This document shows, one piece after another, positions 23,339 to 51,880 of a DNA stretch of 64,000 nt. The stretch covers positions 23,948,635 through 24,012,634 of the forward strand of contig OX421967.1 of assembly GCA_949128115.1 (NCBI GenBank). Reading direction: 5' to 3'. Origin of the DNA: Anaspis maculata (Eukaryota > Arthropoda > Insecta > Coleoptera > Scraptiidae). Positions within the stretch are counted from its first letter, which is position 1; the number at the start of each line of letters is the position of its first letter. Under the pieces are notes generated by a model, which saw only the letters and a program-made list of their open reading frames with translations, searched no databases and was not told where the DNA came from. A program made the position numbers and the translations under genes.

Positions 23339-25778
23339 TAAAAACAAGCGAGTATGCCTTCACGTGCGTGAGTCTCAGTAGCGCATTTTCTCAAAGAGTC
23401 ATATTGTGAACGTAAAGATATTTGGTTGAAGGAGATGAAACACCATTCCTTGCCCACTTTCTTCACTCGAAACTCATTGTGATATTGTGTTATCAGAATG
23501 GGGTACTTGCCAATGAAATAGATTTGAATGAAAATTCTTTCACTCATCAATATATTTTTTTGATTGAGGGCGGGAGCTGGGAGCGGCGACTAATCAGCAG
23601 TAGTCTATTCTTTCCCATTTTCAGTCGGCTATCCATATAGCGAAAGAATTAGATCGCTATGTCTTCGGGTTCATGTTTTCCATTTATCTCTTACTTTGAG
23701 GGCAGCGTGTAGAGGTGGCAGCATTCTGCAAAGTAACTGTTGTACAGTTGGAGTTGAGAGTTTCTAAATGTTAAAGGAAATATGACAATCAATGAAAATT
23801 GTAAAAGTTGCATTTTTTTGTTTGGGGGCGGGAGCTGGAGGCGGCGACTAATCAAAAGTGGCCTATCTCTTCCCATTTTAGTCAACTATCTATATAGCGG
23901 ACCAATTTAATCGCTATGTCTTCAGGGTTATGTTTTACATTCATCTCTTACTTTGGAGGCGGCATGTGGGAGCGGCAGAGTTTGGCAAATAAATTCTTCC
24001 ACAGTTTGAGTTGGGAGTTTCTGAATGTTTGAGGTAACATTAAAATGTAATTCAGTAGGAATTACTCAAAGTTGCACTTTTTCTCTTTTGGGGGTGGAAG
24101 TTGGAGGCGGCGCCATGTCAAAGGTAGCCTATTCTTTCCCATTTTTAGTTAGCTATCCATCCATATAGCGAAAGAATTAGATCGTTATGTCTTCGGGTTT
24201 ATGTTTGTCATTCATCTCTTACTTTGAGGGCAGCGTGTGGGGGCGGCAGCATTCGGCAAAGTAACTATTGCACAGTTTGAGTTGGGAGTTTCTAAATGTG
24301 AGGGAAATATGACAATCAGTGAAAATTGTGAAAGTTGCATGTTTTGTTTGTTTGGAGGCGGCAGCTGGGGGCGGCGGCTAATTAAAAGTGGCCTATATTT
24401 TTCCAATTTCAGTCAGCTATCAATATAGTGGAAGAATTAGATCGCTATGTTTTCGGGTTTATGTTTTTCATTCATCTCTTACTTTGAGGGTAGCGTGTGG
24501 GGGCGGCAGCATTTGGCAAAGTAACTGTTGCACAGTTTGAGTTGGGAGTTTCTAAATGTGAGGAAAATATGACAATCAGTGAAAATTGTGAAAGTTGCAT
24601 GTTTTGTTTGTTTGGAGGCGGCAGCTGGAGGCGGCGGCTAATTAAAAGTGGCCTATATTTTTCCAATTTCAGTCAGCTATCAATATAGTGAAAGAATTAG
24701 ATCGCTATGTCTTCAGGTTCATGTTTTACATTTATCTCTCACTTTGGGGGCGGCGTGTGGGAGCGGCAAAGTTTGGCAAAGAAATTCTTGCACAGTTTGA
24801 GTCAAGAGTTTCTAAATGTTCGAGGTAACAGTATCAGCTAAATCAGTGAAAATTGTTGAAAGTTGCACTTTTTTTCTTTTGGGGGCGGAGGCTGGAGGCG
24901 GCGCCATATCAAAAGTAGCCTATCCTTTTCCATTTTTAGTCAGCTATCCATATAGCGAAAAACTTGGATCACTTTGTCTTTGGGTTCATGTTTTTCATTT
25001 ATCTCTTACTTTGGGGGCGGCGTGTGGGAGCGGCAGCGTTCGGCTGAGCAAATGTTGCACAATTTGAGTTGGCAGTTCTTAAATGTTCAAGGGAACATCT
25101 CAATCAGTAACATTTGTGAAAGTTGCACTTTTTATCGTTTGGGGGCGGAATCTGGGGGCGGCGACTAACCAAAAGTAGCCTATCCTTTCCCATTTTTAGT
25201 CAGCTATTCATATACCGAAAGAATCAGATCGCTATGTCTTCGGGTTTATGTTTTTCATTTTATTGCACTTTTTATCGTTTGGGGGCGGAATCTGGCGGCG
25301 GCGACTAACTAAAAGTAGCCTATCCTTTCCCATTTTTAGTCAGCTATTTATATACCGAAAGAATCAGATCGCTATGTCTTCGGGTTTATGTTTTTCATTT
25401 TAAAGTGATTGGGGGCGGTTTTTAGCAGTTTTTTCATGTCGGCGGCGCATATTGATGACGGAATGTTTCTTGGCTCACGTTTATAAGTGGCAACTATGTA
25501 TTATTCAAAAAATGAGAACACCAGAGCATCAGGTCTGGTAGAAAGTGCAATATTATGTTATTTCAAGTTTATCGGGGGCGGTTTTCTCTATGTTGGCGGC
25601 GCAACATAGACATCCAATATAGCCTAGCCCTCCTTTGGGAGTGGCAGCTATGTAACAGCGAAAAAATTAGAAAGCTAGGTCGTCTAGTTTGGGAGGAGTT
25701 CGAGGAACGGACGGACGGACGGACGGACGGACAAAGCGGTTGCAATAGCGATTTTCATCAAGATGGAAAATGCGCTAA
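23339..25778 (+). repeat. GGGGGCGG tandem-repeat element, copy 1
   Basis: Begins AAAAACAAGCGAGTATGCC and ends with an imperfect hairpin plus CTAA. It contains about seven to eight tandem units of roughly 260 bp. Each unit carries CTATCCATATAGCGAAAGAA, TCGCTATGTCTTCGGG, a GGGGGCGGCGTGTGGG block, GCACAGTTTGAGTTGGGAG and a second GGCGGCGACTAATCAAAAG block. An (ACGG)n run at 25707-25732 lies near the end. It sits in the left arm of the 23.32-28.22 kb palindrome. The intact right arm gives the empty site: left side ...CATCATT, right side AAAAAGG. No protein is recognisable from the repeated ORFs. Confidence 0.85.
25707..25732. repeat. (ACGG)n microsatellite
   Basis: Six ACGG units; the homologous site in copy 2 (about 38314-38360) has about eleven, so the tract varies between copies. 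Confidence 0.9.
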
Positions 25779-33552: not shown

Positions 33553-34074
33553 CTATCCTTTCTGTGTTTTGAAAACTTCGACTAGCACCGCCTGTTCCTG
33601 TCGCTTCACGCTCTTCATGTCCAGCACTTTGTAGAAATCGCCCAGCTGACATTCTGGCAGCAGCTTGCGGTACTGTTCGACGAACGCCTTTGACGGATCC
33701 ACCGGCGTCATGACCACTTTCAGTATCATTTCCGCCTTGGTCATGCCCTTGGTGACCACTTTGGTGTACGAGGCCGGCGCCTGCCGGTTGATTTGCGACG
33801 CGATCGATGGCAAATTAAGCAGGACCGTCTTCAGCATGTGCGTGTCCAGCAGCAGCTGTTCCGCACCCTCGGTGTTGATCGGTTTGCACTTGTAAATGTT
33901 CTGGATGAATTTCGGTATGAAGGAGTTGGCGAATTTGATGCAGAACTGCGTGAAGTATTTGCGAGAATGGGACAGGTTGTCGCGGATGATGGGCACGGTG
34001 GTCTTCAGGTGGGTGGTTATGGAGGTGATGTAGGGGCTCTGGTCGCCGACGGTGTCCACGTTTTGCCATTGGAT
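33553..34074 (-). CDS. VPS53: VPS53 last exon
   Basis: Acceptor TCGCTCCAG; encodes residues 589-761, from [19 protein letters not shown] to [11 protein letters not shown], then TAG at 33555-33553. Conserved features: [52 protein letters not shown], and a [20 protein letters not shown] segment near the C-terminus. Confidence 0.96.
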
Positions 34075-37000
34075 CTGGAGCGACAGCAAAAATATTTCAA
34101 ATGCCTCGGTAATTTCAAGAGAAATGGGGGTGGTGTAGTGCAACTTACTTGAAAATTCACTATTCAGTCAATCCCGATTTACAGATCAGATGGACCAACC
34201 ACTCTCGCAATCACTATCAACCAGTACCTGACCTGACCTGACTCCTCCCTTCTGGTCCATAATGATTGAGGTATGAATCAAGAAATCGGATTTCAAACTT
34301 CTTAGTTCTTAAGTTACAGTTGCGGTTACGTTACGGCGTCAATCTATAAATCGAGCTCACCACGTTCCACGCTTGCTTGGTCAATGTTATCATGAGGGTA
34401 TGGAACCTTACTGTTGGCAAACTAACTCGTGATTACAGATGACGGCTTGAAAATAAGTACTTGGCCGAGACTTGACTGATTAGGTCTTCCAGCGTAACTG
34501 ATCAGCGCGAATGCGAGCGTAATACCGTTGTTAAGACACCAAAATCGCACGAATTTGACAGAATTCGGGATTCGTGTTGACAGCGACACAAACTCGTCTC
34601 GCATGGGCCCCAAAACGAGGCATGTAATGACATTAATTTCAGTTAAATACGCAACTTTGAACGACTGAGTTCTTTGAAATTGGGATTACTGGACTTTTTA
34701 TACGTAAATTCTGCTGGTCGATGCTTCCATTGCGACACTTTCTTTGAAACAATGGCATCGCATTTTTTACACACAAGGGACAAGGGGCTTGAAGTATTGG
34801 GAGTTAGGCAACGTTTCGTAAGGTCATTGACCCTTCCATATCTTCAAAATTAAACGTCAATATTTTTCTTGTGTTCTAGACTGGATTCCATATATCGCTT
34901 TGAATTCGGAATGCGGTACTTTCGAGACACCTGTATGGATGGGTTACCCATCAGTGTCAACGTTACGCTGTCCCTTTATCTCGAGAATGATTTTCTTTTA
35001 CTGACTGTGCCAAATCAAAAATTGCCAAATATCACCAGTGCAACCAACAGCAACGTTTTGGGGAATTCCTATAGTTCAGATTTGGAAACATAGAAACAAA
35101 ATCTCTTAGGGTCACTCAAATCACGGTTACGCTAGAAAACCTGTACTTGTTACAAACGATAGTAATTAATTCTCATTTGGTGGAATACTACAAAGCCTTA
35201 CATCTTACAGACAAAGAGTAGTGTTTGGTCAGTGCTTACGGTTAACGAATTCATGCAAGAAAACTTACAGAGGCCTCAAATGTGATTAAAATAAAAGATA
35301 ATGGATTCTTACCTTGCTCATAGTAGTCAGTGCCGGTTCACAAGCATTCTCCAAGTCTTGGACCAAAATCTGGATGCAGTTCGAAATTACCCTGGAAAAT
35401 TGACCAATTATTACTTTCCCGGCTCCCCATTAATGGAAAGGAAAGTATTGTGATCGTGTTGAAACATTTTTTGGATAACGACAAATTTTGAGGTCCCCAA
35501 GACGATCAAGACCATTTTCAGAGTGACGTCTGTCCGTGTGTATGTGTTTAATCTGACACTATAACTGCCGAGCCATTGATTCGATTGAGTTGAAATTTGG
35601 TATACAAGTGTTCACTGTTCATTTATATTGGAAGCGGTTTTTTACAGCGAACTTATCTGATTGATCGTAATTATTTTTCATAGAATTTATTATGTATCAA
35701 ACGTACTTTATTTTAATGACAAGCAAAACTTTTTCGCTTTTCCAGTTTGACCGGTTGGAAAAAATGAAAGAAGCTATCCGCTATGTGCGTTCACCAAAAA
35801 AGTGGGAGGAGTCGACACAGGCGCTCAAAGTGACGATTTACGAAACTGAAATAATGTCTATTTGTTTTGTTTTCGGTAGCTAGATGTCGCTCCTCGACTG
35901 AATGCGCATGGTGATTCCTCTATGTGCGTTCGTCGGGAGGAGTCGACATCAGCGCTCAAAGTGGTGATTTACGAAACTGAAGGATGCCTATTTGTGATGT
36001 TTTCGGCTGCGAGATGTCGCTACTCGACTGAATGCACATAGGGAATATCTCAAGAAACTTAACTTGCAATAAAACCATTTGGAAGACCCTCAAAAATTGT
36101 ATTTAAAACAGTTGAAAGTGTATGGTATATTCATCCGTTCATTCTCTTCCAGTGAGGGAAGTTGTATTGAAAGGAAAATAAACTGCTCAACAACTGGAAT
36201 GACGGTATCGAAAATTTTGCCCTTTTTCAAAATGACGTAACTTTGGATTGACACGACCGATTTTAAATTTGTTTTCACAGTTTTTTAGATCCATCTTTCA
36301 GCAATCCATCCCATTGACGAGATTTTGTTTTAAATTTCAATTACTTTTTTTACAGAGTGGATTGTAAAACGTTGCAAAATTGTGCTAAGATCCCCGTTTC
36401 TGCAAAAAAATTTTTTTTCGAATTCTAATGAATTATTCCTGAAGCCTGATGTGTAATCTCGAAATGATTTTTGAATTTTCCAGATCAGGAGTCCAACAAT
36501 GACGATATGATTTTTTTACTTTCCCGACCCACCACCCAACGAGGAAGGGAAGTATTGTGAACGCGCTAAAAATTGTTCCCAAGATTTCGACGGATATATT
36601 CGTTTTGAGGTCCCCTATGACAATTAAGACCATTTCAAAAGTGTAGACCCATTTTCAAAATCGACACGGTTCAAGTTTCCCGACGGTAATTTTTTCAAAA
36701 TGAAATTTGCACATTCCGTGAATTTGAGAAAACTGCAGTGCAAACTTCGACATGCGATGAGCTCCACGAAATATTAATTTTAGGTGCAGACATGCTGGGA
36801 ATAAAAGTTGGAGAAAAGATTAAATTAATTTTTAGAGGAAAAATTTCTGAAATCGGACCCACGGTTCTCGAGTTTTCCTCTCTGGAAAAACTGCGAATTT
36901 TTCAGCTTTTTATCCCGTGAACAGATTTTGCTGGGTCGGGAAAGTAAAAACAAGTGAGTATGCCTTCACGTGCGTGAGTCTCAGTAGCGCATTTTCTCAA

Positions 37001-40000
37001 AGAGGCATATTGTGAACGTAAAGAAATTTGGTTGAAGGAGAAACACCATTCCTTGCCCACTTTCTTCATTTGAAACACATTGTGATATTGTGTTATCAGA
37101 ATGGGGTACTTGCCAATGAAATAGATTTGAATGAAAATTCTTTCATCAATATATTTTTAGTCGGCTATCCATATAGCGAAAGAATTAGATCGCTATGTCT
37201 TCGGGTTTATGTTTTCCATTGATCTCTTACTTTGAGGGCAGCGTGTGGGGGTGGCAGCATTCGGCAAAGTAACTGTTGCACAGTTTGAGTTAAGAGTTTC
37301 TAAATGTTTAAGGAAATATGACAATCAAAGAAAATTGTGAAAGTTGCATTTTTTTTGTTCGGGGGCGGGAGCTGGAGGCGGCGACTGATCAAAAGTGGCC
37401 TATATCTTCCCATTTTTAGTCAGCTATCTATATAGCGGAACAATTTGATCGCTATGTCTTCGGGGCTATGTTTTACATTCATCTCTTACTTTGGGGGCGG
37501 CGTGTGGGAGCGGCAGAGTTTGGCAAAGGAATTCTTCCACAGTTTGAGTTGGGAGTTTCTGAATGTTTGAGGTAACATTAAAATGTAATTCACTAGAAAT
37601 TATTGGAAGTTGCACTTTTTCTCTTTTGGGGGTGGAAGTTGGAGGCGGCGCCATGTCAAAGGTAACCTATTCTTTCCCATTTTTAGTTAGCTATCCATAT
37701 AGCGATAGAATTAGATCGTTATGTCTTTGGGTTCATGTTTTTCATTTATCTCTTACTTTGGGGGCGGCGTGTGGGAGCGGCAGCGTTCGGCTGAGCAAAT
37801 GTTGCACAATTTGAGTTGGCAGTTCCTAAATGTTTAAGGGAACATCTCAATCAGTAACATTTGTGAAAATTGCACTTTTTATCGTTTGGGGGCGGAACCT
37901 GGGGGCGGCGACTAACCAAAAGTAGCCTATCCTTTCCCATTTTTAGTCAGCTATTTATATACCGAAAGAATCAGATCGCTATGTCTTCGGGTTTATGTTT
38001 TTCATTTTAAAGTGATTGGGGGCGGTTTTTAGCAGTTTTTTCATGTCGGCGGCGCATATTGATGACGGAATGTTTCTTGTCTTACGTTTATAAGTGGCAA
38101 CTATGTATTACTCAAAAAATGAGAACACCAGAGCATCAGGTCTGGTAGAAAGTGCAATATTATGTTATTTAAAGTTTATCGGGGGCGGTTTTCTCTATGT
38201 TGGCGGCGCAATATAGACATCCAATATAGCCTAGCCCTCCTTTGGGAGTGGCAGCTATGTAACAGCGAAAAAATTAGAAAGCTAGGTCGTCTAGTTTGGG
38301 AGGAGTTCGAGGAACGGACGGACGGACGGACGGACGGACGGACGGACGGACGGACGGACAAAGCGGTTGCAATAGCGATTTTCATCAAGATGGAAAATGC
38401 GCTAAAAATCATATCGTCATTGTTGGACTTCTGATCTGGAAAATTCAAAAACCGTTTCGAGATTAGACATCAGGCTTCATGAATAATTCATTAGAGTTCG
38501 AAAAAAAAATTCACAGAAACGAAGATCGATAGAACTCGGCACAATTTTGCAATGTTTCCTGTAAAAAACCTGTAAAAAAAGTAATTGAAATTTAAGACAA
38601 AATCTTGTCAATGGGATGGATTGCTGAAAAATGGATCTGAAAAACTGTGAGAACAAATTCAAAATCGGTTGTGTCGATCCAGAGTTACGTAATTTTGAAA
38701 AAGGGTAAAATTTTCGATACCGTCATTTCAGTTGTTGAGCAGTTTGAATGAGATTCTTTTCTGAAGTCCATTCAATTGAAAATTTGGAACTTTGTACCGT
38801 ATGATCAGAAACTTTCTTACTCAAGGGGGGCTGTGGTCCTGGTCATTGGCAGGCAAACGAGGCTGATTTTGGCCAGGCCACGGCCTCCCTTGGGTGAAAA
38901 AGTTTTTAATGAAACAAAGCTCTCCGACTACCAGAACATCAGACGGTCGAACCGAAACTGCACAGACAGATGTTTCGCCCCTATTGGGGGCTCATCAGTG
39001 CGCAGGCATTCAGCTCAACCATTCGATGCTGTGGCAATCAGAGAACTCATGGTAATATACACCCAAGAGGACTCCTAATATGTGAGTCTTCCAAGCGGCG
39101 CCATCTATCAAAGGCATTCCGCAGATGCTATATTTCAAAGCATCAGGCATGCGAGGGAATTAATAGAATTCCACGTAAAGCAACACCGTCGCCAAGAGCA
39201 TCGATGGTAGGTGTACACATGTATACTCAAGCAGAGTAGAGCTTGAGCGTGTGGGTGAAAATGTACCCACACGACGCCAAATTTAATCCAATTTGGGTGC
39301 CAGTCGAAATTTTTCGGTAAAAGTCGATCTTCCGACAGGAGATGCCTCCTCCGGAGACTCACGCACAATCGTTCTGACCAAAAAAACAGGTAGTCCGCTT
39401 CGGTTCCCGTTGCGTGAAGGCAGCATTCGGTTTTCTCGAGTGATTTCAACCGGAAAAGGCGTTCCCGTAACTTTAAAAAATTCGTAGCATCTGACCAGGA
39501 AACAGTGGAACACCCGGATTGCTGACCAAAAGTTGCTTTGTTGTTGCCTTGTTCTTTTTTTTCTTAATTATTATTACACCATGCATTTTTGCCCGAATTT
39601 GGTTAAAAATCCATCAGGTAGTTTTTGAGATATTAAATTTTACTTCGACAATTTACAACTTTCGACAGATGACAGATGGAGCATTACATCAACTATTATG
39701 AAGTCAGTTTTTCAAGGACTTTTAAATGGTATATATCAAAAGTCCAGTTCCGTAAGAAACATCGTGTGCCATTTTTTGACAGTGACACTTTCGCTTGACA
39801 GATCACGACCAGAATCTATAATTTCAAGATAAAACTATGTATAGGTACCAAATTTCAAGTCGACCGGGTCGAAGGTTAAGCAGTTACCGTGGGAGACTAC
39901 AGGCTGACATTTTCTGGAAATTACCTTAATCGTTTTGGGTGACCTCAAAATAGATATATCCGTCGGAATCTCGATCATTTCTGAGCGATCACTATACCTA

Positions 40001-43000
40001 TAATAATCAATTTTACGGCTTTCTTCATTGGGGAAAATGTGTTGTGTTGGCACGAATGGTAAGATCCTACATACATTTTGAAGCTTTGATAGATTTGCTA
40101 TGTATAGCGTGACAGTTGTCACCGTCGTCTCAACGCAATGCACCCGTAAGTGGAAATTTATATGACTGCGCAGCGAAATTAGGGAAACGTGAGCCCCCTG
40201 TAGTGGAAGTTGCTGTGGTCGACAAAAGACATCGTCTCTACCATGGTCGGCGGCTCCTCGCTGACGCTGTTAGGTGAGCGGCGGTCACTGATGAAATTTC
40301 ACGGCCAAGCGCGGCAGTACTATGTAAAATGCAGGAAAACTCCAACTGTCCATAGTCCAGGAATTTTAGAAAAAATAGCGAACAAAAATGAAAGCGAGCC
40401 GGATTTTTGTATATAAGCTCAGGTAAGCATGTAGTTTAACATAGTAAAAGTCCTCAAGAATCCGGTGTGAGCTTCGGCCGTTGTGGTCTCGAGAAGAACT
40501 TGAGGATCATAGTTTTTCGCGTATATCTCGTGAACAATGGCACTTAGAAAGAAAGTGTTTGAGAAAAATTGTTGAAAATTTTATTGTCTATAAGAAAGGT
40601 CCTTACACATTCCATCGTCAGTCCACTTCTTCTTCGTCAAAACACAAGAAAATTAAAATAATCCAGATGCTCGATGCTGAAGACTGTATGAACCTTGAGT
40701 TTTATGATGGCGGGGTGCCACTTGGTGGAGGTGTTGTTCGATCTATTCTGTTTTGACTGAAACTATTTGCCATCAATACCAACTATGCCGGCGGCATATA
40801 CAGGGTGGAATAAAAATAAAAAGTTGAACAAATGTACCTCAAGAACCAAAATAGGTGAAGACTTATAAATCGACAAAAAGATTTCTTATTTCATGGTCAA
40901 GAAGTCGTCGTAAATTTGGATCAAATATGTTGAGCCGTTTCTGACATATCTTCAGGAGACTGAAGTCGTTACGAAAAAAAACTGGTTTTCCGTATATCAG
41001 TAATTCTTCAGATATTGAATCGAGACTTGGTGTTTCGAATCGAAACAATGATATATAATATTTAAAATCAAATAATAGTGAAAAACACTCTCTAGGCCAA
41101 CTACTTTTAGGAAAAACACCGTCAACTTTTTTTCTGATGAGTAGGCGAAAACATTATTTTTTTCGATAACAACTTCAGTAATTTGAAGATATTTCAAGAA
41201 CGGCTCAAGATATCTAATTCAAGTTTACGATGACTTCATGACCATGAAATCAGAATTATTTATGGCGATTTACATGTCTTCACCTATTTTGGTTCTTGAG
41301 GTACAAATGTTCAACTTTTCATTTTTATTTCACCCTGTATAGGCCGCCGGCATAGTTCGTATTGATGGCTTCAAGTTTCAATCAAGAAATAGTGGACCAA
41401 CCAACAACTCTACGAGGTGGCACTCCGCCATCATAAAACTCAAGGTCCATACAGTCTTCAGTATCGAGCATCTGGATTATTTTAATTTTCTTGTGTTTTG
41501 ACGAAGAAGGAGTAGACTGACGATGAAATGTGTGAGGACCTTTCTTATTCGCGATTTAAATTAATTTTTCCCGCCACAAAATGGCCGCGAAAGGCGGAAT
41601 TCAACTGGCAGGTCGAGGTGACATGAGATGTCATACTCACAACTCACAACCCCACTTTTATTGTATCAATCACCCACCTCTGTCAGTCTGTCACCCACCA
41701 CTCAGTGTTTTCTGTTTACTCCAGTTTACTCCTTGCTTGGCTTCCTAGTGTGGTCCCAGTTAGAGATAGTGCGTCTGTTTGCTGTATTCGAGTTTTGCGA
41801 GTAAATTGAAAGTGATTGTTGTGTTAAGTGGTATTACTGTATCCCATCGTTAGTCACAGAACGTGAACAAGGAAACTTTGGTGGACAAGAGAAATGGAAA
41901 GAAGACTGGGCTCAACAAACTGTACCCGAATGAAACCAGCTCCTAAATGTCCATGGAGCACCTTCTGGATTTGAACTCCCCGGAACTTCAAGAGGGTTCG
42001 CACAGGTCCCGGACCCGGACGATGTGCTGATTCGTTTTACACAACACAACAATCACTATGAATTTACTCGCAAAACTGGAATACAGCAAACAGACGCACT
42101 ATCTCTAACTGGGACCACACTAGGAAGCCAAGCAAGGAGTAAACTGGAGTAAACAGGAGACACTGAGTGGTGGGTGATTGATACAAAAAAAGTGGGGTTG
42201 TGAGTTGTGAGTGTGACATCTCATGTCACCTCGAGCTGTCAGTTGAATTCCGCCTTTCGCGGCCATTTTGTGGCGGGAAAAATTAATTTAAATCGCGAAT
42301 AGACAATAAAATTTTCAACAATTCCTTCTCAAGCACTTTCTTCGTAAGTGCCATCGTTCACGAGATATACACAAAAAACTGATCTTCAAGTTCTTCTCGA
42401 GGCCACAACGGCCGAAGCTCACACCGGATTCTTGAGGACTTTTACTATGTTAAACTACATGCTTAACTGACCTTATATACAAAAATCCGGCTCGCTTTCA
42501 TTTTTGTTCGCTATTTGCGATTACAACAGCTAAAATTCCTGGACTACCAATGAACTCCGTTAGATTAATTTCTTAGATGGGCCATAAGTTCTAGAGTTGG
42601 ATTGCGCGAGACGAGACACGTGTGAGTGAGTGCACTGTGTTGGAATCTTGTCCATTTCCTGTATGTATCTTCTCCTTCATATACAGGGTGGTCCAGTTTT
42701 TGATACATCAATTTTGAGAGATGATTAAGAATCAAAAATGAATAACATAATAACGGAGATATAGCCCTTCAAAGTTAGAAATAAAAATCGTTTTTTTAGC
42801 ATAGCTTTTGAACCGTTCAACTGATTTTGTTCAAAGGACCCCGCACGATTCTTATGGAAAATGGGTCTCGGTCAAATTCCCTGATTTTCTTATATGTTGT
42901 AGCCCAATTTGACACAAGCCAAAAACCATCGTCCGTTACCCAAAAAAATGGACAGTCTTTTTTCTATAAGGGGTTGAAAATGGGTTATTTCAAGGTAAAA

Positions 43001-46000
43001 AAATATGTTCCAACGTAAGTGAGAACATTTCAACGTCCTTTTTAACACATATCGCTCATGACAATTCCCTTTTTCTTTTGTGAAAAAATCAACCCCCTCC
43101 CTCACCCCCAACCCTTACTTGTGAGTATAAAATTCGAAATTACGTTTGAAAGTCTTACAGATAGTTCTATTTTGTCGAATTATCAATTTTGGCACAAATT
43201 TTTTTTCCAACCCCCAAATAGGGGGTGGGGTTGAAAAAAAAAACATCGGTCAATTCGACTGAATTTCTGATATTGTGCTTTACCAGTTACGCTAAACAAG
43301 ATTACCAAGGGAAAACTCATTCGTATGACCAGTTTCCACCCCACAGAGGGTTGAAGTTGACTATAATGACGCATAAAACATTCTTCCATGTCATAAACCA
43401 AATGAATGGAAATAGTGGACTTTCATATCATCTTGTTTCGTGAAAATGTCTATTCTCCAAAAATACTTTCAATCCCGTCCTTCATCCCCTATCCCTGTTT
43501 CTGAACATCATATTCGAAACAAATATTGGAATTCATATCAATTTTTATTTCATCCTTCAAATAGTCGCAGTAGCTAGAATAAGAGTGTGACATAATATTT
43601 TGCTTTGATTGAACAGCTTTCGCTCCAAATGACATAAAATTCTTCAATCTAAACTTCGATCTAAACTATAAGTAGAGGTGTATCCGTACAAAAGAAAAAA
43701 GTTAGGAACTATAATCAATTTCACGGCTATCTGCATTAGAGCAAGCTATGGAAAAATTATTTTTTGTTGGTAGGAATGAGTAGGAATCCATAACCGTCGT
43801 CGTAGAAGATTTGTGTAAATGTGGTATGTGAAAAGGCTAGGTCTTGTGGCATTTGTGGCAGATGTCACCCGTCGCGTGGTGTGATGCACGTCAAGTCAAA
43901 ATGTTCAGTTTATTTGAGGAAAACAGATAAACACGTGTTCCTCGAAGTGTCAATTAGCTGGACACGGGTTGGTGGCTCTTTACTTGTGCTTTGGTAGTGG
44001 CGGCCAGTGAGCCAGTGTGTTGAATGACGCCCACAGATGATGACGCCAAAGGAAGTCAGCGGTAGCACCAAAGGGAAGTAAGACTGATAGTGGGAAGTAC
44101 TACGTGCTCTACAACACTAAAACAGCATACAAGCCAGAAGAAGATGAAGAAGGGAATACATACATGAAATGGTCAATAATTTCATGTTGAGAAGATCTTC
44201 CAACACAGAGTGCACTCACGCGTCGTGTCTCGACTGTCTTGTCTTGTACAGTGCAACTCCATAAATCAATGTCCATGGAAGCGAATTTTCTCAACCTCAC
44301 TGGGGCCACTGGACAGGCATTTTCAATAATTTTTCTTTCCTTTAGTGCTGCCGCTGACTTCCTTTGGCGTCATTTTATACACTGGCTCACTGGCCGCCAC
44401 TACCAGAGCACAAGCAAAGACCCACCAACCCGTGAAGACGGTTTCTAGCAAATTTACACTCCGAGGAACACGTTTTTATCTGTTTTCCCCAATAAAACTA
44501 AACATTTTGACTTGATGTGCATCACACCGCGCGACGGGTGACATCTGCCACAATACCTAACCTTTTCACATACCACATTTACACAAACTATCTGCGACGA
44601 CGGTTATGGATTCCTACTCATTCCTACCAACAAAAAATAATTTTTCCATAGCTTGCTCTAATGCAGATAGCCGTGAAATTGATTATATGTAGGTACAGGT
44701 AAACATAATTAACCTGCTGTAAAGTTGAGACTTGATAGGAGCACCAATATTTTTAATAATAATCCAGGCAAAAAATCATTCAATCAAATGTATGTCTCAC
44801 CCTGCTGTAAGGGTGCTAGCATACCTAAGCATAATAGTGAAAGTGAATTTTGAGAGGAGATTCACAATCAGATGCAGAGAATCCGACCGTAGACTTTCTC
44901 CTTCATTTTCAAGATTTATTTCGAATATGATGTTCAGAAACAAGGATAGGGGATGAGAGACGGGGTTGAAATTATTTTTGAAGGATAGACATTTTTACAA
45001 AACAAGATGATATGAAAGTCCACTATTTCTATTCATTTTGTTTATGACATGGAAGAATGTTTTATGAGTCATTATAGTCAACTTCAACCCTCTGTGGGGT
45101 GGAAACTGGTCATACGAATGAGTTTTCCCTTGGTAATCTTGTTTAGCGTAACTGGTAAATAGCCCAGGCGCCAGGGAGCAAAAATCAGCTCAATAAGGAA
45201 ATAATTGTTTCCTGGCTGGAAACTAGCTTAAAACGATCTGTGTGGCTCAGGTTTTGACATACTAATTTCCCCCCTTTCGGAAATGTCAGCGTCATGTCGC
45301 CATCATCAACAAGAAGTGCACCAGCGTGGTTTTTGCCGAATATCTTGATTTTGGGCCATCTGACAGCAAAAGATGTAAGAAGTCATTTTGAAACCAATAA
45401 AATTTCCTACGGAATAGTTTTTAAATGGCCTTTCTGCAACCTATGGTTTTTGAGATAGAGCTTCTGGAAGCGAGAGGCATTGTCGTAAAAGATCCATGGT
45501 CACTTGATTCGAAAAACTAAAATGACGATGTGACAAAAAAAATTCACAATGAGATTTCTCAAGAATCCTTCATGTTATAGTTGCGGTGATGGTCTTAAAC
45601 CCTTTCTCTTGAACCGTTGATTACGAATATAGAAAAGTCAAAAACGTCACATTGTACATATACAGGGTGTACTGAAGGAATCAAATCAGATCAGAGAAAT
45701 TTTACATATTTCTTCGATTTAGCCTATATGCGACACTCTAAGCACCTAACACGAGTCCAATATCAATATGGATTTGCTCTATAAGCTTCACTTAATACAC
45801 TAAAGAAGTGATCAGCTCACAGCTTCACTGTAAAATGTTTTGAAGGCCCTCTGAAATCATCAAAATATTAAAAATTTACAGTACCAAGGAATGTATATAA
45901 CAGTATATTATATACCAAAGGACCAAAGTGAATTTTGAATTTGGGGATTTGGACCCAAAGGGCCCTCGAGCAACAAACTTCACCCAAAGGATCAAAAATT

Positions 46001-49000
46001 CACTTTGGTTCCTTGGTATATAATATACTGTTACATACATTTCTTGCTACTGTAAATTTTGATGATTTCAGAGGGCCTTCAAAACATTTTACAGGAAGGC
46101 TGTGAGCTGACCACTTCTTAACTGTATCAAGTGAAGCTTACAGAGCAATGCATATTGATATTAGACTCGTCATAAGTGCTTAGAGTTTCGCATAGGCTAA
46201 ATCGAAGAAATATGTCAAATTTCTCTGTTCTGATTTGATTCCCGTAGTACACCCTGTATATGTACAATGTGACGTTTTTGACTTTCCAATATTCGTAATT
46301 TACGGTTCAAGAGGAGGAGTTTAAGACCATCACCGCAACTATAGCATGAAGAATTCTCGAGTAATCTCATTTTGAATTTTTTTTTGTCACATCGACATTT
46401 TAGTTTTTTAAGTCAAGTGGCCATGGAGCTTTCCAGCTTTCATCACAATGACTCTCGCTTCCAGAAGCTCTATCTCAAAGACCATAGGTCGCAGAAAATT
46501 GATTGAAAAACCAAACTGTAGGGAATTTCATAGGCTTAAAAATGACTCCTTACATCTTTTGCTGTCACATGACCCAAAATTAAGATATTCGGCAAAAACC
46601 ACGCTGGTGCACTTCTTGTTGATGATGGCGACATGACGCCGACATTTCTGAAAGGGGGGAAACTAGTATGTCAAAACCTAAGCTACACAGATCGTTTCAA
46701 GCTAGTTTCCAGCCAGGAAACAATTATTTCCTTATTGTTTTCCCTGGCGCCTGGGCTAAAAGCACAATATCCGAAATTCAGCCGAATTGACCAATGGTTT
46801 TTTTTTCAACCCCCCCCCCCCCCTATTTGGGGGTTGGAAAAAAAATGGTGCCAAAATTAGTAATTCGACAAAATAGAACTATCTGCATGACTTTCAAACG
46901 TAATTTCGAATTTGATACTCACAAGTGGAGGTTGGGGGTGAGGGAGGGGGTTGATTTTTTCACAAAAGAAAAAGGGAATTGTCATGAGCCATATGTGTTA
47001 CAAAGGACGTTGAAATGTTCTCACTTACGTTGGAACATATTTTTTTACCTTGAAATAACCCATTCCCAACCCCTTATAGAAAAAAAACTGTCCATTTTTT
47101 TGGGTAACGGACGATGGTTTTTGGCTCGTGTCGAATTGGGCTACAACATATAAAAAAATAAGGGAATTTGACCGAGACCCATTTCCCATAAGAATCGTGC
47201 GGGGTCCTTTGAACCAAAGTTTACTTAGGCAAGTCTTTATCGAACAATAATAATACGTCTCATTAAACTTATCCAGGGGCGTAGATAATAGGGGGCACCC
47301 CTCTTTTTGCCCCCTAATTTTTTACCCATTTGAAAACTTTTGAAAATTGTTCATATGTTTGGTTCTATTTTCTATGGTTCTATGGTTCAATGGTTTTAAT
47401 TTAAAAAAATACTCTTTTTAAATTAAAGGCTTCGTTTTTAGAATATCTGGGTTTGAAACTTTGAAAAACATCTCGAAATCCTAACTTTCAGAGCCTAAAA
47501 ATTTTGTTCCCTGAAAACTTCTTGTTTGTCAGCAGAAAATGGTAGTTCAGCAGCTTGCAATACCTAGAGAACTTATTTCAGTTGAGAAATCATGACCACT
47601 CTTAGATTTTAATTTTTAGGCACTTGAAAGTGGTGTTTCCAAGATAATTTCCGAAATTTCAAACTCAAATATCTTGAATATCTCGAAAATGAACCTCAAA
47701 ACAAAATTTTGCAAGAGTAACTTTTTTCTTTTGAATTGAACACAGAACTCAAAAATATGAAGATTTAAAAAAAAATCAAGGGGGTAAAAAATTTGGGGAC
47801 AAAAAGAGGGTTGTCTCCTATTATCTTGGTCCCTGGATAATTTTGATAAAACGCGTCATTATCGTTCGATAGAGACTCGTTTAAGTGAACTTCTTCTCCT
47901 TCTTTTTCGATTCTCTATCGTCTCTCAAAATTAATGTACCAAAAACTGGACCACCCTGTGTGCTTGCTATATCAGTAGGTATAAGATAGAGTAGGAGGAA
48001 GGAGGAACTCACTACTCAGTGATTTATATTCATTCTCTTTAGTACAGCCGAGTTTGGCCATAATTTTCTTCAGTGACGCCACCGCTCACCTAGCAGCGTC
48101 AGCGAGGAGCCGCCAACCACGGTAGAGATGATGTCCCTTGCCGCAACTTCCACCGCAGGGGGCTCACGTTTCCCTACTTTCGCTGCGCAGTTACAAAAAT
48201 TTTCACTTGCGGGTGCATCGTGTCCAGATGACGGTGACAGCTGTCACATTATACACAGCACATCTATCAAGGCGTCAAAATCTAGTTAGCATTGGACCAT
48301 TCATGCCAACACATTTTTTGCATAGACTGCTCTAATGAATAAAGCCGTGAAATTCATTATACTTTCCCTTTCATGGTTATTGGGAGCCAGGGGAGCGCAA
48401 AAAGGTTACCACAAGTTCAACTTATAATTTTTCATGTTGGCATGTTATCTGATATCCTATAGAGCATGTTTCATTAGAGCTTTAATAGCTTAGTGAAAAC
48501 TTCAGAAATATTCTTGTGAGAATGCCAACGAAACGTTTCTAAACCACACATACTTGTGGAAATTATCCTGTTCCTTTGACAAATCGATTTGATCGGCCAG
48601 CGCTGGCTCGATCTTCTCCTTCAACTTCTCGCCCAGCTGCTGCGTAGTCTCCAGACAGTACTCGGCCGTGGACAAAATGCAGCAAATCTTGGCCAGTTCG
48701 TCCTTGGTGAACCTGACGATTTCTCCTTCCTTGAACACGGACGAGAAATTGTGTATCAGCCCGGAAGTCTTGAAATTCTGCAGATCTCTGGTGAGCATCT
48801 GAACGCCCGAGCCCAGAGTCTGGATCTTGGGCAGGGCGTTCTGGAGGAGCTTTTCCGAGTACTCGTGCAGGTACTTCTGGAAGGTCCTGGTGAGGCTCAG
48901 CATGGACGATCCCCGGTCGAGCTGGTTGCACTGTATCATGCTCTTCTTGTAGAACACGAACAGGTCGGGGCAGCTGTTGAGAATGGGGGCTTGCGTTTCG

Positions 49001-50292
49001 GTCGCTTCGGTGATGTTCTGGCGTTCGTCTTGGATGAATCTGTCGATCAAATCCGACAGGTTCCTGTCGACGCTTTCGATGTAAATCTCCAAGTGCGGTA
49101 TGAAGCACCGGCCGATTATCCCCGAGAAATCGTTCGTGGCCCCGCTTTCCACCAGCGTGATGCCGGTGAAACGTTTCGAAAGAAGCGCTTCGAAGCCGGA
49201 AGTTTTCTGGATGGCATACAGCAATAGCTTTACATCAACTTCCGATTTTCTTTTCGTCATGATCCTGGACAGTTCTTCTCTGGTATTCACGCAAAACTGC
49301 ACGGCGATTCGTTCGGAAACCTCCCAGTTTTGCGGAAATAAATTTCCTAATTTATCCTCAAATTCTAGCAAGTGCCTTTTGATCCAGGCGTATCTCTTGT
49401 CTATCTTATCCAACCAAGCTGTATCTTCCGTCTCTTGGAACAAATGGTTGTACTCTTGTAGTTGCAAATCAACGAACCATTTCAGCAGTTCTCTTTTGAC
49501 TCTCGGATCCAAGATCGACACGACCAAGCAGGCTTGAGCTAGTTGTTTAGTTGGAATCTTTGAGTTAGGATTCGAAAACGCTTCTTTGAAATCGAACGTG
49601 ATTTGCTCGGCTAAATCCACGTGTATGCTTTTGACTTGATCGCTCAAGTTTTTAATCTGCTCGATGGCCAAGTAGTTTTCGAAATGCGTCATGACTTCGC
49701 TGATCGCTTGAAGAGGTAAGGCTATTTCACCATACAGGCGTTTCTGTGTTAGGACTTTGAGCGTATCGACGCCGCCTTCAAGCATATGTAAGTGATTCAA
49801 TATAGTTATCGCTAGCGTCAAGTTCTTTTTAGCGCAATCTAATTGTTTGATATCTCGAGTGATTTCACGTACCATCTCTTCAGATTTCTCCGCACGTTCT
49901 TTGATGTCCTTTATGTGGACGAACAGTTGCTTGATTACTTTTTGGGCTTCATCCAGGGCTTGTCGACCCTCTTGACTGGCGGCTATTTGCCCACGGACAA
50001 CGCTGCTGATCTCGTTGTCAATTGAGAATATCTTGTTTTCGGTTTTGGCCACGACTTCATCTATATTTGACAGTGATTGTTCTGTGGGGAACAGCGAGTT
50101 TATGTGGTCGATGCTGTTGAAATCGGGCTCGTCTAGCGGTCCTTTGCTCGGCAACACCTGAAAATTCACCCTTGATAAGCACAATCTTTTGGGACCAATT
50201 TTAGCGGTTACCTCGTCGATAGCTTTTTGGACTTCCGCCGGAAAATTGATGACGTAATCTTGGATTTCGTCGAGTTCTTCTTCGTTTTCCAT
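33553..50292 (-). CDS. VPS53: VPS53 subunit of GARP/EARP tethering complexes
   Basis: Subunit of the GARP (with VPS51, VPS52, VPS54) and EARP tethers, acting in endosome-to-Golgi and recycling transport. Coding exons (minus): 50292-50212, 50157-48554, 35391-35313, 34074-33553; all introns GT-AG; they sum to 2286 nt = 761 aa plus TAG. N-terminal region: [18 protein letters not shown], then LFPTEQSL at 49-56. A coiled coil spans about 58-150 ([27 protein letters not shown]). [14 protein letters not shown] is at 275-288. The C-terminal helical part has [27 protein letters not shown] and [20 protein letters not shown]. Order and spacing match animal VPS53 throughout. Splicing out the 54-nt first intron is required to match the family. 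Intron 2 is 13.2 kb and full of nested transposable elements. Confidence 0.97.
34075..35312 (-). other. VPS53 intron 3 (1.24 kb)
   Basis: GT-AG intron without a recognised repeat or RNA gene. Small plus- and minus-strand ORFs have no protein-like features. Confidence 0.7.
35313..35391 (-). CDS. VPS53: VPS53 exon 3 (79 nt)
   Basis: Acceptor TTTTCCAG, donor GTAAGAAT. With the last two bases of exon 2 it encodes [19 protein letters not shown] then PALTTMSK, residues 562-588, a highly conserved stretch. Too short to show as an ORF; identified by phase and homology. Confidence 0.95.
35413..36050 (+). repeat. ACTTTCCCG dispersed repeat with internal duplication
   Basis: Starts ACTTTCCCGGCTCCCC and continues GGAAAGTATTGTGATCG, GAGGTCCCCAAGACGATCAA, AAGACCATTTTCAGAGTG. 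The first 120 bp are homologous to 36518-36640 at the start of GGGGGCGG copy 2. A 139-bp tandem duplication follows: 35781-35919 and 35920-36041, each with CTATGTGCGTTC, GGGAGGAGTCGAC, GCGCTCAAAGTG, ATTTACGAAACTGAA and GATGTCGCT-CTCGACTGAATGC. No coding capacity recognised. Confidence 0.7.
36512..38405 (+). repeat. GGGGGCGG tandem-repeat element, copy 2
   Basis: Starts TTTACTTTCCCGACCCACC. A 430-bp leader ends in the inverse of that start (GGGTCGGGAAAGTAAAAAC, near 36932), after which ACAAGTGAGTATGCC and the tandem units follow as in copy 1. About four to five 260-bp units are present, fewer than in copy 1. It ends with the (ACGG)n tract, the hairpin GCGATTTTCATC/GATGGAAAATGCG and CTAA at 38402-38405. 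The hairpin-CTAA end recalls Helitrons, but the next base is A rather than T in both copies, so this is not a canonical Helitron end. Confidence 0.8.
38314..38360. repeat. (ACGG)n microsatellite, longer copy
   Basis: About eleven ACGG units; the corresponding tract in copy 1 has six. Confidence 0.9.
38761..39999. other. VPS53 intron 2 segment around the ribozyme
   Basis: 38780-39240 presumably derives from the retroelement carrying the hammerhead; its ends are not defined. 39240-39300 contains GTGTGGGTGAAAATG followed by CACACGACGCCAAATTTAA, matching fragments at 5840-5890. 39500-40000 shows nothing recognisable. ORFs crossing the ribozyme on either strand have no protein-family features. 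Confidence 0.5.
38958..39005 (-). ncRNA. Type I hammerhead ribozyme
   Basis: Reading the minus strand from 39005: stem I strand CTGCGCA; the conserved core CTGATGA (38998-38992); stem II of five GC pairs, GCCCC/GGGGC, closing a CAATA loop (38991-38977); the conserved GAAA (38976-38973); a two-pair stem III (AC/GT) with loop ATCT; then the GTC cleavage triplet ending at 38965; and the second stem I strand TGTGCAG (38964-38958), pairing 7 bp with the first (one G-U). Every core position of the hammerhead consensus is satisfied. Type I hammerheads with a very short stem III are established in Penelope-like elements and animal retrozymes. No reverse transcriptase, GIY-YIG or second ribozyme copy was found here, so it is probably a truncated or non-autonomous element. 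Confidence 0.88.
40801..41337. mobile_element. CAGGGTGGAATAAAAATAAAAA palindrome (TATA flanks)
   Basis: 537 bp. CAGGGTGGAATAAAAAT and the inverse ATTTTTATTTCACCCTG, flanked by TATA on both sides (40797-40800 and 41338-41341). It lies at the centre of the host palindrome, because GCCGGCGGCATA on the left is mirrored by GGCCGCCGGCATAG on the right. Landmarks ACCTCAAGAACCAAAATAGG and its inverse. Confidence 0.92.
41548..42299. mobile_element. TTCGCGATTTAAATT palindrome (TA flanks)
   Basis: 752 bp. Perfect-looking ends TTCGCGATTTAAATTAATTT and inverse, TA at 41546-41547 and 42300-42301. Arms of about 270 bp include CCGCCACAAAATGGCCGCGA, GAGATGTCA, CTCACAACCCCACTTTT and ACTCCTTGCTTGGCTTCCTA. The spacer is 41831-42039. 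It interrupts the right arm of the outer element between CTTTCTTA and AGACAATAAAA; the uninterrupted left arm shows the junction. Confidence 0.92.
43710..44687. mobile_element. Palindrome with ends like the 40.0 kb element
   Basis: Ends TATAATCAATTTCACGGCTA and inverse. Arms of about 365 bp (43710-44075 and 44330-44687) share GCATTAGAGCAAGCTATGG, GACGGTTATGGATTCCTACT and CGCGACGGGTGACATCTGCC. The terminal 20 bp match the outer ends at 40001 and 48361, so both belong to one family. Confidence 0.88.
45160..46758. mobile_element. TAGCCCAGGCGCCAGGG element with AAA target duplication
   Basis: 1599 bp. Ends TAGCCCAGGCGCCAGGG and inverse. AAA at 45157-45159 is repeated at 46759-46761. The undisturbed left arm of the host (near 43280) reads GGTAAAGCACAAT on the corresponding strand, so removing the insert and one AAA restores the host exactly. 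Arms run several hundred bp (CCAGCCAGGAAACAATTATT, GCTTCCAGAAGC-type and GACGTTTTTGACTTT landmarks). Confidence 0.93.
45663..46256. mobile_element. CAGGGTGTACT palindrome (TATA flanks), centred in host
   Basis: 594 bp. Left TATA-CAGGGTGTACTGAAGGAAT, right inverse -TATA. The sequence outside is also palindromic (ACATTGTACA on the left, TGTACAATGT on the right), so this frame is exactly concentric with the 45160-46758 element. Landmarks GAAATATGTAAAATTTCTCT-type and TATATAATATACTG. Confidence 0.92.
47214..47905. mobile_element. Inverted-repeat insert in the right arm
   Basis: About 690 bp interrupting the right arm of the 42.68-47.96 kb element. Arms of about 120 bp pair: TTATCGAACAATAATAATAC with GATAATGACG/GTTCGATAGAG; ATAATAGGGGGCACCCCTCT with its diverged inverse near 47805. 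The ends are not sharply defined. Confidence 0.65.
48554..50157 (-). CDS. VPS53: VPS53 exon 2 (main coding exon)
   Basis: 1604 nt encoding residues 28-561 and two bases of codon 562. Donor GTATGTGT starts at 48553; the ORF that continues past it is intronic. Contains the N-terminal coiled coil and the middle helical domains. GC-richer than the surrounding introns. Confidence 0.96.
50158..50211 (-). other. VPS53 intron 1: 54 nt, stopless, multiple of three
   Basis: GTAACC...TTTTCAG. Read through, it would insert 18 residues ([18 protein letters not shown]) between IDE and [10 protein letters not shown]. Other VPS53 proteins pass directly from this helix to the PLD...F-N segment, which is the reason for calling it an intron. 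The splice sites are ordinary; the length is near the minimum for insects. Confidence 0.85.
50212..50292 (-). CDS. VPS53: VPS53 exon 1
   Basis: Encodes the first 27 residues, [20 protein letters not shown] then VQKAIDE. Donor GTAACC starts at 50211. The ATG is the first in frame, and the acidic N-terminus followed by an EVQKAI-type motif fits the family. Confidence 0.88.
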
Positions 50293-50658
50293 CGCTTCAA
50301 CTGGAGAGAATCACAAAAATATGCTAAATAAAGGAGACGTCAAACTGACAAACGAGGTTATGTTCGAGGTGTCAGTACTGTCAGCCAACTCAACTGTCAA
50401 CACTCAACTTGTCAATGCCAAACAGCAACTTCGGCTTAGCGCCATAGTGCCGAAAGCACTATTTAACGGGATTTGAAAAATAAAAGAAAACTCGCATTGA
50501 ATTTTGAATTAGTAAAGCCATCCTTTCTCTTCCAATATTAACGTAAACGGTGAATTTCTGTTGAAAAATAAGGTCTTTCACACGAAGGCGTGATCGCATT
50601 GAACCATTTGTACGGAAGCGTAGAAGGGCCAGGCTGCGAATCTTTTTACGGACACAGA
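50293..50658 (-). promoter_or_regulatory. VPS53 5' region
   Basis: Immediate upstream sequence between the VPS53 ATG and the minisatellite. No TATA box or initiator could be called with confidence. Short repeats of TCAACTGTCAA/ACTGTCAG occur near 50375-50410. Confidence 0.35.
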
Positions 50659-51081
50659 GTCGAGTTTCAAAGTCGACCCGGTCGAGTTTCAGACTCGACC
50701 CGGTTGAGTTTCAAACTCGACCCGGTTGAGTTTCAAACTCGACTTTCTGCGTAAAGTCGAGTTTCAAAGTCGACCCGGTCGAGTTTCAAAGTTGACCCGG
50801 TCGAGTTTCAAACTCGACTTTCTGCGAAAAGTCGAGTTTCAAAGTCGACCCGGTCGAGTTTCAAACTCGACTTTCTGCGTAAAGTCGAGTTTCAAAGTCG
50901 ACCCGGTCGAGTTTCAAAGTCGACCCGGTCGAGTTTCAAAGTCGACCCGGTCGAGTTTCAAACTCGACCCGGTCGAGTTTCAAACTCGACTTTCTGCGTA
51001 AAGTCGAGTTTCAAACTCGACTTTCTGCGTAAAGTCGAGTTTCAAAGTCGACCCGGTCGAGTTCCAAAGTCGACCCGGTCG
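50659..51081. repeat. Minisatellite of self-complementary GTCGAGTTTCAAA units
   Basis: About 20 repeats of a 21-22-bp unit, GTCGAGTTTCAAAGTCGACC then CG, interspersed with variants that include TTTCTGCGTAAA (about 32 bp). Many units contain the perfect 19-bp palindrome GTCGAGTTTCAAACTCGAC. Starts 367 bp upstream of the VPS53 ATG. The plus-strand ORF through it only translates the repeat. Confidence 0.95.
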
Positions 51082-51175: not shown

Positions 51176-51880
51176 TGTGTAAGATGTCCTTTGGCCTCTT
51201 TTGTACATATCCAACATACCCTATAACCTCATTTTCAACCTTTTGACCTCAAGAGGCTAAAAGGTTGGATTACAACGACACATCCAAAACCTCCATTGGC
51301 TTCATTGGCGATTGCAGCGCCACTTGACCATTTTGAGGCGTTTGAGTGGGGGATTGGAGTGGATCGGCCCAGATGGGCATTTCGTCAGTCGATCAACAAC
51401 AGAGCAGGGATGCGGCTGCTTGTCGGCCGGCACACACTGTGGTGGTGATCGTAGTGTGATTTTTGGGGGTGCGGAGCAGTTAAACCCTGCAATGATATTA
51501 TTTGCAACGCACGTTTACCACCTCGGTGTGTGTGAGCTTTGTTCCAGCGCTCAGTCCTGCATTAGGAATAAATGTTTTGCTGGATACCTCAGTTATGGTT
51601 TTGTGTTTGCGCTTAGCAGGTGGGGAGAGTGCGAGTGAAAAATAAATTGCCGTGTTTCAACCTAGGACGTTTGGTTCCGAGTCGGATACAAATGTTTTAT
51701 TTCGGAATTTTATTGCTAGATGTTTATGAGCCTAATCTTGGAAATCAGTGAACATGACCCGTGGTGCTGGAACTTTTTTCCAATTCACCTACCTAGCTTG
51801 GGGAACAAGAGGGTTGAAAATACCTGAAATGCATTTTTGAATATACACCTACCTCATTTCTATTGCAACAATTGCAAAAT
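51082..51880. other. Non-coding, with a (TA)n tract
   Basis: (TA)n at about 51143-51173. The ORF at 51312-51638 (plus) has no recognised features apart from several cysteines. Nothing else recognised. Confidence 0.4.
51143..51173. repeat. (TA)n microsatellite
   Basis: About fifteen TA units following GGATATC. Confidence 0.95.

What the first reader, a model, noticed from the sequence alone, without database searches (positions are those of the whole stretch)
38958..39005. Complete type I hammerhead ribozyme inside VPS53 intron 2
All conserved core parts (CTGATGA, a GC-only stem II, GAAA, a GTC cleavage triplet) and both stems I and III are present on the minus strand in 48 nt. Stem III is only 2 bp, the form established for hammerheads of Penelope-like elements and animal retrozymes. 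No RT or GIY-YIG ORF is nearby, so this may be a non-autonomous element. It lies on the same strand as VPS53, so the unspliced transcript would contain the ribozyme and could be cut there unless the short stem III limits activity.
Basis: partly seen in the sequence, partly recalled or inferred. Interest (0 to 1): 0.88.

Follow-up and report, generated by a model that had tools for sequence, protein, structure and literature searches.

The report
Hammerhead ribozyme in beetle VPS53 intron
An intron of a VPS53 gene, likely a beetle's, carries on the gene's own strand a sequence with every part of a hammerhead ribozyme; it is predicted to cap a long RNA hairpin, was likely left by a small retrozyme-like mobile element, and would, if it folds as predicted, cut the gene's unspliced RNA.

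Summary
The minus strand at 38958-39005 carries a complete type I hammerhead: CTGATGA, 5-bp stem II, GAAA, 2-bp stem III with tetraloop, GUC, 7-bp stem I. A descriptor scan finds it once in the window; 3 of 1200 shuffles have any hit. Best Rfam match is HH9 (31.4 bits, E 6.5e-4), below its gathering score of 52. It lies, sense, in VPS53 intron 2 (48553-35392) of a likely tenebrionid beetle. New here: it caps a 132-nt rod (38917-39048) with the largest strand difference of 2129 windows (-77.5 vs -40.3 kcal/mol) and 12 G-U pairs to 1 A-C mismatch, which suggests shaping as minus-sense RNA. Helix III has the published invertebrate form, not the usual PLE form. No RT/endonuclease domain, second hammerhead or tandem repeat was found beside it. 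Most likely a lone retrozyme-like copy. Activity is untested; the energy model favours a competing core pairing by 5.7 kcal/mol. The genome-copy search did not complete (20 tries), so domestication cannot be excluded.

The parts
38958..39005 (-). Type I hammerhead ribozyme core with stems I (7 bp), II (5 bp), III (2 bp); cleavage expected after C38965
   Evidence: Rfam RF02275 match 38941-39018
38992..38998 (-). conserved core CTGATGA
38977..38991 (-). stem II (5 G-C pairs, loop CAATA)
38966..38973 (-). stem III, A-U and C-G pairs closed by tetraloop ATCT
38941..39018 (-). Match to Rfam Hammerhead_HH9 over its whole length, including the outer part of stem I beyond the internal loop
   Evidence: 31.4 bits, gathering 52
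38917..39048 (-). Predicted RNA rod with the hammerhead at its tip: 54 pairs in the minimum-energy fold, 12 of them G-U; far weaker on the plus strand
38799..38915 (+). Adjoining imperfect hairpin, more stable as plus-strand RNA (-67.1 vs -47.0 kcal/mol for 38795-38915); possibly part of the same element, possibly separate
39055..39300 (-). Several short hairpins in the upstream flank, about equally stable on both strands (-86.8 and -90.0 kcal/mol for 39050-39300); part of a 521-nt stretch (38780-39300) with minus-strand fold z-score -9; membership uncertain
35392..48553 (-). VPS53 intron 2 (GT...AG, 13,162 bp) that holds all of the above

Best explanation
The minus strand of VPS53 intron 2 in what is likely a tenebrionid beetle contains every conserved part of a type I hammerhead ribozyme, which is predicted to cap a 132-nt RNA rod, likely came from a retrozyme-like non-autonomous retroelement, and would cut its transcript after C38965. 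Shown by sequence and calls: the complete core, the position and strand in intron 2, the low-E but sub-threshold HH9 match, and the strand-asymmetric predicted rod rich in G-U pairs. Inferred: the sequence once lived as a minus-sense structured RNA that was reverse transcribed and inserted into the intron in sense. Read-through transcription of VPS53 would make the ribozyme, which would cut the intron co-transcriptionally, leaving a 2',3'-cyclic phosphate and a 5'-OH. The long helix I should hold the two products together, and cleavage deep inside a 13-kb intron would probably do little to VPS53 splicing. Untested: activity. A weak helix III and a competing core pairing suggest slow cleavage as a single motif.
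For: Full core and descriptor scan: one hit, 3 of 1200 shuffles with any hit. HH9 match over the full model. Rod: z -8.07 for 38920-39069 on the minus strand against -2.51 on the plus strand, 40 shuffles each; largest strand difference among 2129 overlapping 150-nt windows. 12 G-U against 1 A-C (binomial P 0.003; 0.013 if 2 A-C are counted); in a neutral fold-back simulation at four mutation rates, 20,000 runs each, at most 0.0003 of runs have 12 or more G-U with 2 or fewer A-C and 3 or fewer other mismatches. The hairpins of equal or greater strength at 50.7-51.1, 18.8, 14.7 and 45.9 kb fold nearly alike on both strands, as DNA fold-backs do. Helix III of 2 bp with a tetraloop is called similar to invertebrate hammerheads, and retrozyme circles are described as highly self-paired (PMC7229834).
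Against: No hit above Rfam gathering scores. Only one hammerhead in the window, whereas animal retrozymes are described as tandem repeats from dimers upward and below 50% G+C; the rod has 53% G+C, the 521-nt stretch 48%. No exact flanking direct repeat of 9 or more bases except one 10-mer 361 bp apart, and 35 of 300 shuffles share a 10-mer too. The hammerhead fold lies 5.7 kcal/mol above the ensemble in the nearest-neighbour model (HH9 consensus: 1.0 with a 4-bp helix III, 1.9 with Rfam's 3-bp helix III), because GAUG of the core can pair with CAUC. Strand-asymmetric folds are not unique to the rod: differences of 20-28 kcal/mol occur elsewhere, e.g. at 24.2-24.5 kb, inside VPS53 exon 4, at 35821-35970 (5 G-U vs 0) and, at 18 kcal/mol, 51421-51570 (8 G-U vs 1). 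The A-C count is a lower bound, since the fold was chosen to maximise pairs. Genome copies never searched.
Confidence: 0.6

Rival explanations
1. Domesticated intronic hammerhead: the ribozyme is kept by selection in the VPS53 intron and tunes processing of the pre-mRNA, as proposed for the intronic hammerheads of amniotes (PMC6155905; PMC3088659 passages).
For: Same strand as the gene; all core positions intact; best Rfam model is HH9; rod asymmetry on the sense strand.
Against: No comparative evidence at all; the match is far below HH9's own gathering score (31.4 vs 52); the stretch of intron examined (36-42 kb) is rich in repeats and fold-backs, so a mobile insertion is the simpler prior; the HH9 match reflects shared type I form, not orthology.
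Confidence: 0.15
2. Fossil of a Penelope-like or other autonomous retroelement whose coding part is lost.
For: Type I hammerheads are conserved in PLEs (PMC7761336 passages; PMC11167929 passages).
Against: PLE hammerheads usually lack helix III and/or loop contacts; here helix III is a 2-bp hairpin and helix I is long; no RT or endonuclease domain in 36901-41802, six frames; no second hammerhead in the window.
Confidence: 0.1
3. Dead, decayed copy: the element inserted long ago and no longer self-cleaves.
For: Competing GAUG/CAUC core pairing and 5.7 kcal/mol penalty; single copy with no detectable ends.
Against: No core position is mutated and the rod has few mismatches, so decay cannot be advanced. 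This rival shares the origin of the best explanation and differs only in activity.
Confidence: 0.25
4. Ordinary DNA fold-back or hairpin-RNA (siRNA-type) locus with a chance hammerhead at its tip.
For: The window holds several other long hairpins, some strand-asymmetric folds exist elsewhere too, and an inverted repeat of 2 x 392 nt lies 1.6 kb away in the same intron.
Against: The hairpins of equal or greater strength are nearly strand-symmetric with 0 to 5 G-U, this one is not; Rfam E = 6.5e-4 and 3 of 1200 shuffles with any hit make a chance core unlikely.
Confidence: 0.05

Closest known systems
Non-LTR retrozymes of animals (type I hammerhead, PMC7229834)
   Same: Type I topology, full core, helix III of 2 bp with a tetraloop, highly self-paired RNA with the hammerhead inside it.
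   Different: One hammerhead only and no 150-450-bp tandem repeat carrying it in this window; no convincing ends or target-site duplication; rod slightly above 50% G+C.
Rfam RF02275 Hammerhead_HH9 (that this family is an amniote intronic hammerhead, of the C10orf118/CTCL intron, is recalled; no call gave it)
   Same: Aligns over all 77 model positions including the outer helix I; intronic, sense strand.
   Different: 31.4 bits against a gathering score of 52; helix III of 2 pairs where the Rfam consensus has 3; different gene, insect host; no evidence of conservation.
Minimal hammerheads of Penelope-like elements
   Same: Type I, weak helix III.
   Different: PLE forms usually lack helix III and/or the loop contacts and sit in tandem pseudo-LTRs beside an RT-GIY-YIG ORF; none found here.
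RAGATH-1 hammerhead (RF03152)
   Same: Weak match to the same site.
   Different: 17.6 bits, E = 4: not significant.

Membership tests
Hammerhead ribozyme, type I | Conserved catalytic core and NUH cleavage triplet between three helices | tested here: met
Hammerhead ribozyme, type I | Open end in helix I, helices II and III closed by loops | tested here: met
Hammerhead ribozyme, type I | Covariance-model support | tested here: inconclusive
   E = 6.5e-4 to HH9 over the window but no model reaches its gathering score
Hammerhead ribozyme, type I | Loop I - loop II tertiary contact | tested here: inconclusive
   Helix I has an internal loop in the place where HH9 has one (alignment), but the loop bases differ; the contact cannot be shown by secondary-structure tools
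Hammerhead ribozyme, type I | Self-cleavage | not testable with these tools
   needs in vitro transcription
Animal non-LTR retrozyme | Canonical type I hammerhead with helix III of 2 bp and a tetraloop (invertebrate form) | tested here: met
   form described in PMC7229834
Animal non-LTR retrozyme | Two or more hammerheads in tandem repeats of about 150-450 bp | tested here: not met
   single hammerhead in the window; no tandem array at 38.8-39.3 kb
Animal non-LTR retrozyme | G+C below 50% | tested here: inconclusive
   rod 53%, 38780-39300 48%; the ends of the element are unknown
Animal non-LTR retrozyme | Many genomic copies | not tested
   The genome search gave no answer in 20 tries
Animal non-LTR retrozyme | Small circular RNA in tissue | not testable with these tools
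   no RNA data
Penelope-like element | RT and GIY-YIG coding sequence | tested here: not met
   no Pfam hit up to E 0.1 in six frames of 36901-41802; the rest of the intron was not scanned
Penelope-like element | Minimal hammerhead without helix III, in tandem pseudo-LTRs | tested here: not met
   helix III present as 2 bp with tetraloop, single copy
Amniote-type domesticated intronic hammerhead | Intronic, sense strand | tested here: met
Amniote-type domesticated intronic hammerhead | Conserved across species at the same intron | not tested
   no eukaryote genome collection was within reach

The most novel reading that the evidence does not exclude
An insect counterpart of the intronic hammerheads of amniotes: a domesticated ribozyme at the tip of a selected 132-nt RNA rod that cuts the VPS53 pre-mRNA inside its 13-kb second intron, the long helix I holding the cut ends together so that cleavage and religation can act as a switch on intron processing.
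Probability: 0.12. Interest if true: 0.85.

Novelty: new member of a known kind. Interest (0 to 1): 0.5.

Why it matters
PMC7229834 places most classical type I hammerheads of animals, insects included in general terms, in tandem retrozyme repeats. A solitary, complete, rod-capping copy in a housekeeping-gene intron is a clean place to ask whether such copies cut host pre-mRNAs and how single ribozymes pass from mobile elements into gene introns, the route proposed for the intronic hammerheads of amniotes. Three paper searches aimed at beetles listed no hammerhead from a beetle genome: 1 paper; 0 papers; 15 listed of 3,715; the library holds only open-licence papers, so this is weak evidence of absence.

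Tried and rejected
Rfam at gathering threshold: nothing in the window. The microRNA-like Rfam matches beside the ribozyme (mir-939, mir-61, mir-240; E 0.46-4.4) and at 50.7-51.1 kb (E down to 1.5e-5) were set aside as hairpin look-alikes below gathering score. A second ribozyme in the plus-strand hairpin 38799-38915: no ribozyme family matched it at E up to 10. A second hammerhead elsewhere in the window: none listed. Target-site duplications: one 10-mer only, which 35 of 300 shuffles also show. Exact pattern scans for the core with its stem III: 0 in viral contigs and 0 in genome contigs; an insect element is not expected in either. Related sequence inside the window: 39256-39340 resembles 5858-5941 at about 71% and 38878-38913 resembles 4430-4463 inverted; in opposite senses, so not one common element, and neither match covers the ribozyme. 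RNA editing (A to I, then reverse transcription) as the source of the G-U pairs: none of the 12 G follows a G, which fits but is too few to decide. Circular folds of six guessed units gave no preferred unit. Two papers (EMBO Rep 2010, MBE 2014) are not held. PMC4191386 came up for 'HH9', but its HH9 is an unrelated designed ribozyme.

Full report
Observation. Reading the minus strand gives CTGCGCA-CTGATGA-GCCCC-CAATA-GGGGC-GAA-AC-ATCT-GT-C|TGTGCAG at 39005-38958. Every conserved core position is present (numbering recalled); stem II has five G-C pairs, stem III two pairs and a tetraloop, stem I seven pairs, and cleavage would follow C38965. A mechanical scan for core plus stems of at least 5/4/2 pairs finds this site and no other on both strands of the window; 3 of 1200 dinucleotide-preserving shuffles have any hit. 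Rfam at gathering thresholds lists nothing in the whole window. With an E-value threshold the site matches Hammerhead_HH9 (RF02275) over positions 1-77 of 77, 31.4 bits against a gathering score of 52, E = 8.1e-6 in 801 bases and 6.5e-4 in 64 kb against 4227 families. It is the only hammerhead site in the 25 rows. The E-value needs care: palindromic repeats at 50.7-51.1 kb reach E 1.5e-5 to microRNA families in the same search, also below gathering score, and those I take for look-alikes.

Host and gene. The large minus-strand ORF 48502-50310 has Vps53_N (E 4.9e-137) and 33553-34167 has VPS53_C (E 2e-24). The closest named proteins among the 120 listed of 1556 are from Asbolus verrucosus (83% identity), Tribolium madens and Tenebrio molitor (79% each), so the host is most likely a tenebrionid or near-tenebrionid beetle (inference). 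tblastn and splice sites read by eye give four coding exons: 50292-50212, 50157-48554, 35391-35313, 34074-33552. Intron 2 is 48553-35392, 13,162 bp, and holds the ribozyme on the gene's strand, about 9.6 kb from its 5' end and 3.6 kb from its 3' end.

Folding 101 nt around the site shows stem I continuing beyond a small internal loop (z -5.79, 0 of 200 shuffles as stable). The full fold is a rod from 39048 to 38917 with the hammerhead at its tip (54 pairs). It is specific to the minus strand: z -8.07 against -2.51 for window 38920-39069. In a scan of 2129 overlapping 150-nt windows (4258 folds) it has the largest strand difference, -77.5 against -40.3 kcal/mol. The hairpins of equal or greater strength, at 50.7-51.1, 18.8, 14.7 and 45.9 kb, fold nearly alike on both strands with 0 to 5 G-U pairs each, as DNA fold-backs should. 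Against uniqueness: differences of 20 to 28 kcal/mol also occur at 24.2-24.5 kb, in VPS53 exon 4, at 38.2 kb and in the weaker hairpin 35821-35970, and 51421-51570 has 8 G-U against 1. The rod has 12 G-U pairs against 1 A-C mismatch (binomial P 0.003; 0.013 if 2 are counted). A simulated neutrally decaying fold-back has 12 or more G-U with at most 2 A-C and 3 other mismatches in at most 0.0003 of 20,000 runs at each of four mutation rates. The test is biased to some degree because the fold was chosen to maximise pairing. The reading is that the rod was shaped as minus-sense RNA. Next to it lies a hairpin (38799-38915) that is more stable as plus-strand RNA (-67.1 vs -47.0 kcal/mol); I do not know whether it belongs. 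The whole 521-nt stretch 38780-39300 folds strongly on the minus strand (z -9), but nearly as well on the plus strand (-203 vs -213 kcal/mol).

Mechanism. The site would be made whenever VPS53 is transcribed. If the three-way junction forms, the RNA would cut itself after C38965; helix I would hold the ends. Against efficient cleavage, GAUG of the core can pair with CAUC at helix III, and the nearest-neighbour model puts the hammerhead fold 5.7 kcal/mol above the ensemble, against 1.0 to 1.9 for the HH9 consensus treated the same way with a 4-bp or Rfam's 3-bp helix III. The model gives no credit for the non-canonical core contacts, so this is a caution, not a disproof. Published work says that a weak helix III in many cases prevents self-cleavage of type I motifs as monomers but not as dimers (PMC7761336), and an axolotl motif with a 2-bp helix III cut 22% in an hour (PMC7229834). 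Activity here is untested.

Origin. PMC7229834 states that most classical type I hammerheads of animals lie in non-autonomous non-LTR retrozymes, tandem repeats of 150-450 bp, expressed as highly self-paired RNAs of about 170-400 nt, and calls a helix III of two pairs with a tetraloop similar to invertebrate hammerheads. That is this ribozyme's form. Penelope-like elements usually carry minimal forms without helix III and/or loop contacts, and no RT or endonuclease domain is within 36901-41802. But the tandem repeat that defines animal retrozymes is missing here, no convincing target-site duplication was found, and the rod's G+C of 53% is a little above the published range. So I file it as a type I hammerhead that looks retrozyme-derived, not as a retrozyme.

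Limits. The decisive comparison, copies in this genome and in other beetles, could not be made: the genome search did not answer in 20 tries. Pattern scans of viral and prokaryote collections gave 0 hits and say little about insects. Without copies, a domesticated intronic ribozyme and a lone insertion cannot be told apart; I give the first 0.12-0.15. Literature searches aimed at beetles listed no hammerhead from a beetle genome, showing 15 of 3,715 papers; PMC7229834 mentions insects only in general.

Noticed in passing
36180-38745: Element-like unit with inverted ends (176 nt at 93%, 108 nt at 94% complementarity) enclosing about three diverged copies of a ~260-bp unit and an ACGG array; a 6.5-copy array of a 260-bp unit at 23555-25259, with another ACGG array at 25707, looks like the same unit by its consensus. 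Its end lies about 170 bp from the ribozyme rod.
   Followed up: partly
38799-38915: Imperfect hairpin next to the ribozyme rod, stronger as plus-strand RNA (6 G-U) than as minus-strand RNA (2 G-U).
   Followed up: partly
40590-41548: Large fold-back in the same intron: 392-nt arms, 86% complementary, 175 nt apart.
   Followed up: no
50659-51081: Array of a 22-bp palindromic unit (GTCGAGTTTCAAACTCGACCCG) just upstream of VPS53; gives strong, nearly strand-symmetric hairpins and sub-threshold microRNA-family matches.
   Followed up: partly
53302-60815: Three blocks of a ~411-417-bp tandem repeat; weak, sub-threshold U6atac matches (E 0.04-0.5) fall in two of them.
   Followed up: no
1864-2205: 171-bp tandem duplication (97% match) inside a minus-strand ORF with a weak BRCT match.
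   Followed up: no
39256-39340 and 5858-5941: About 71% identical stretches in the same orientation: a dispersed repeat at the upstream edge of the structured region.
   Followed up: partly
18811-18960, 14701-14850, 45901-46050: Long, nearly strand-symmetric hairpins, probably DNA fold-back elements.
   Followed up: partly
35821-35970 and 51421-51570: Weaker hairpins that are strand-asymmetric on the plus strand (-58.3 vs -38.3 and -57.9 vs -39.6 kcal/mol; 5 vs 0 and 8 vs 1 G-U).
   Followed up: no
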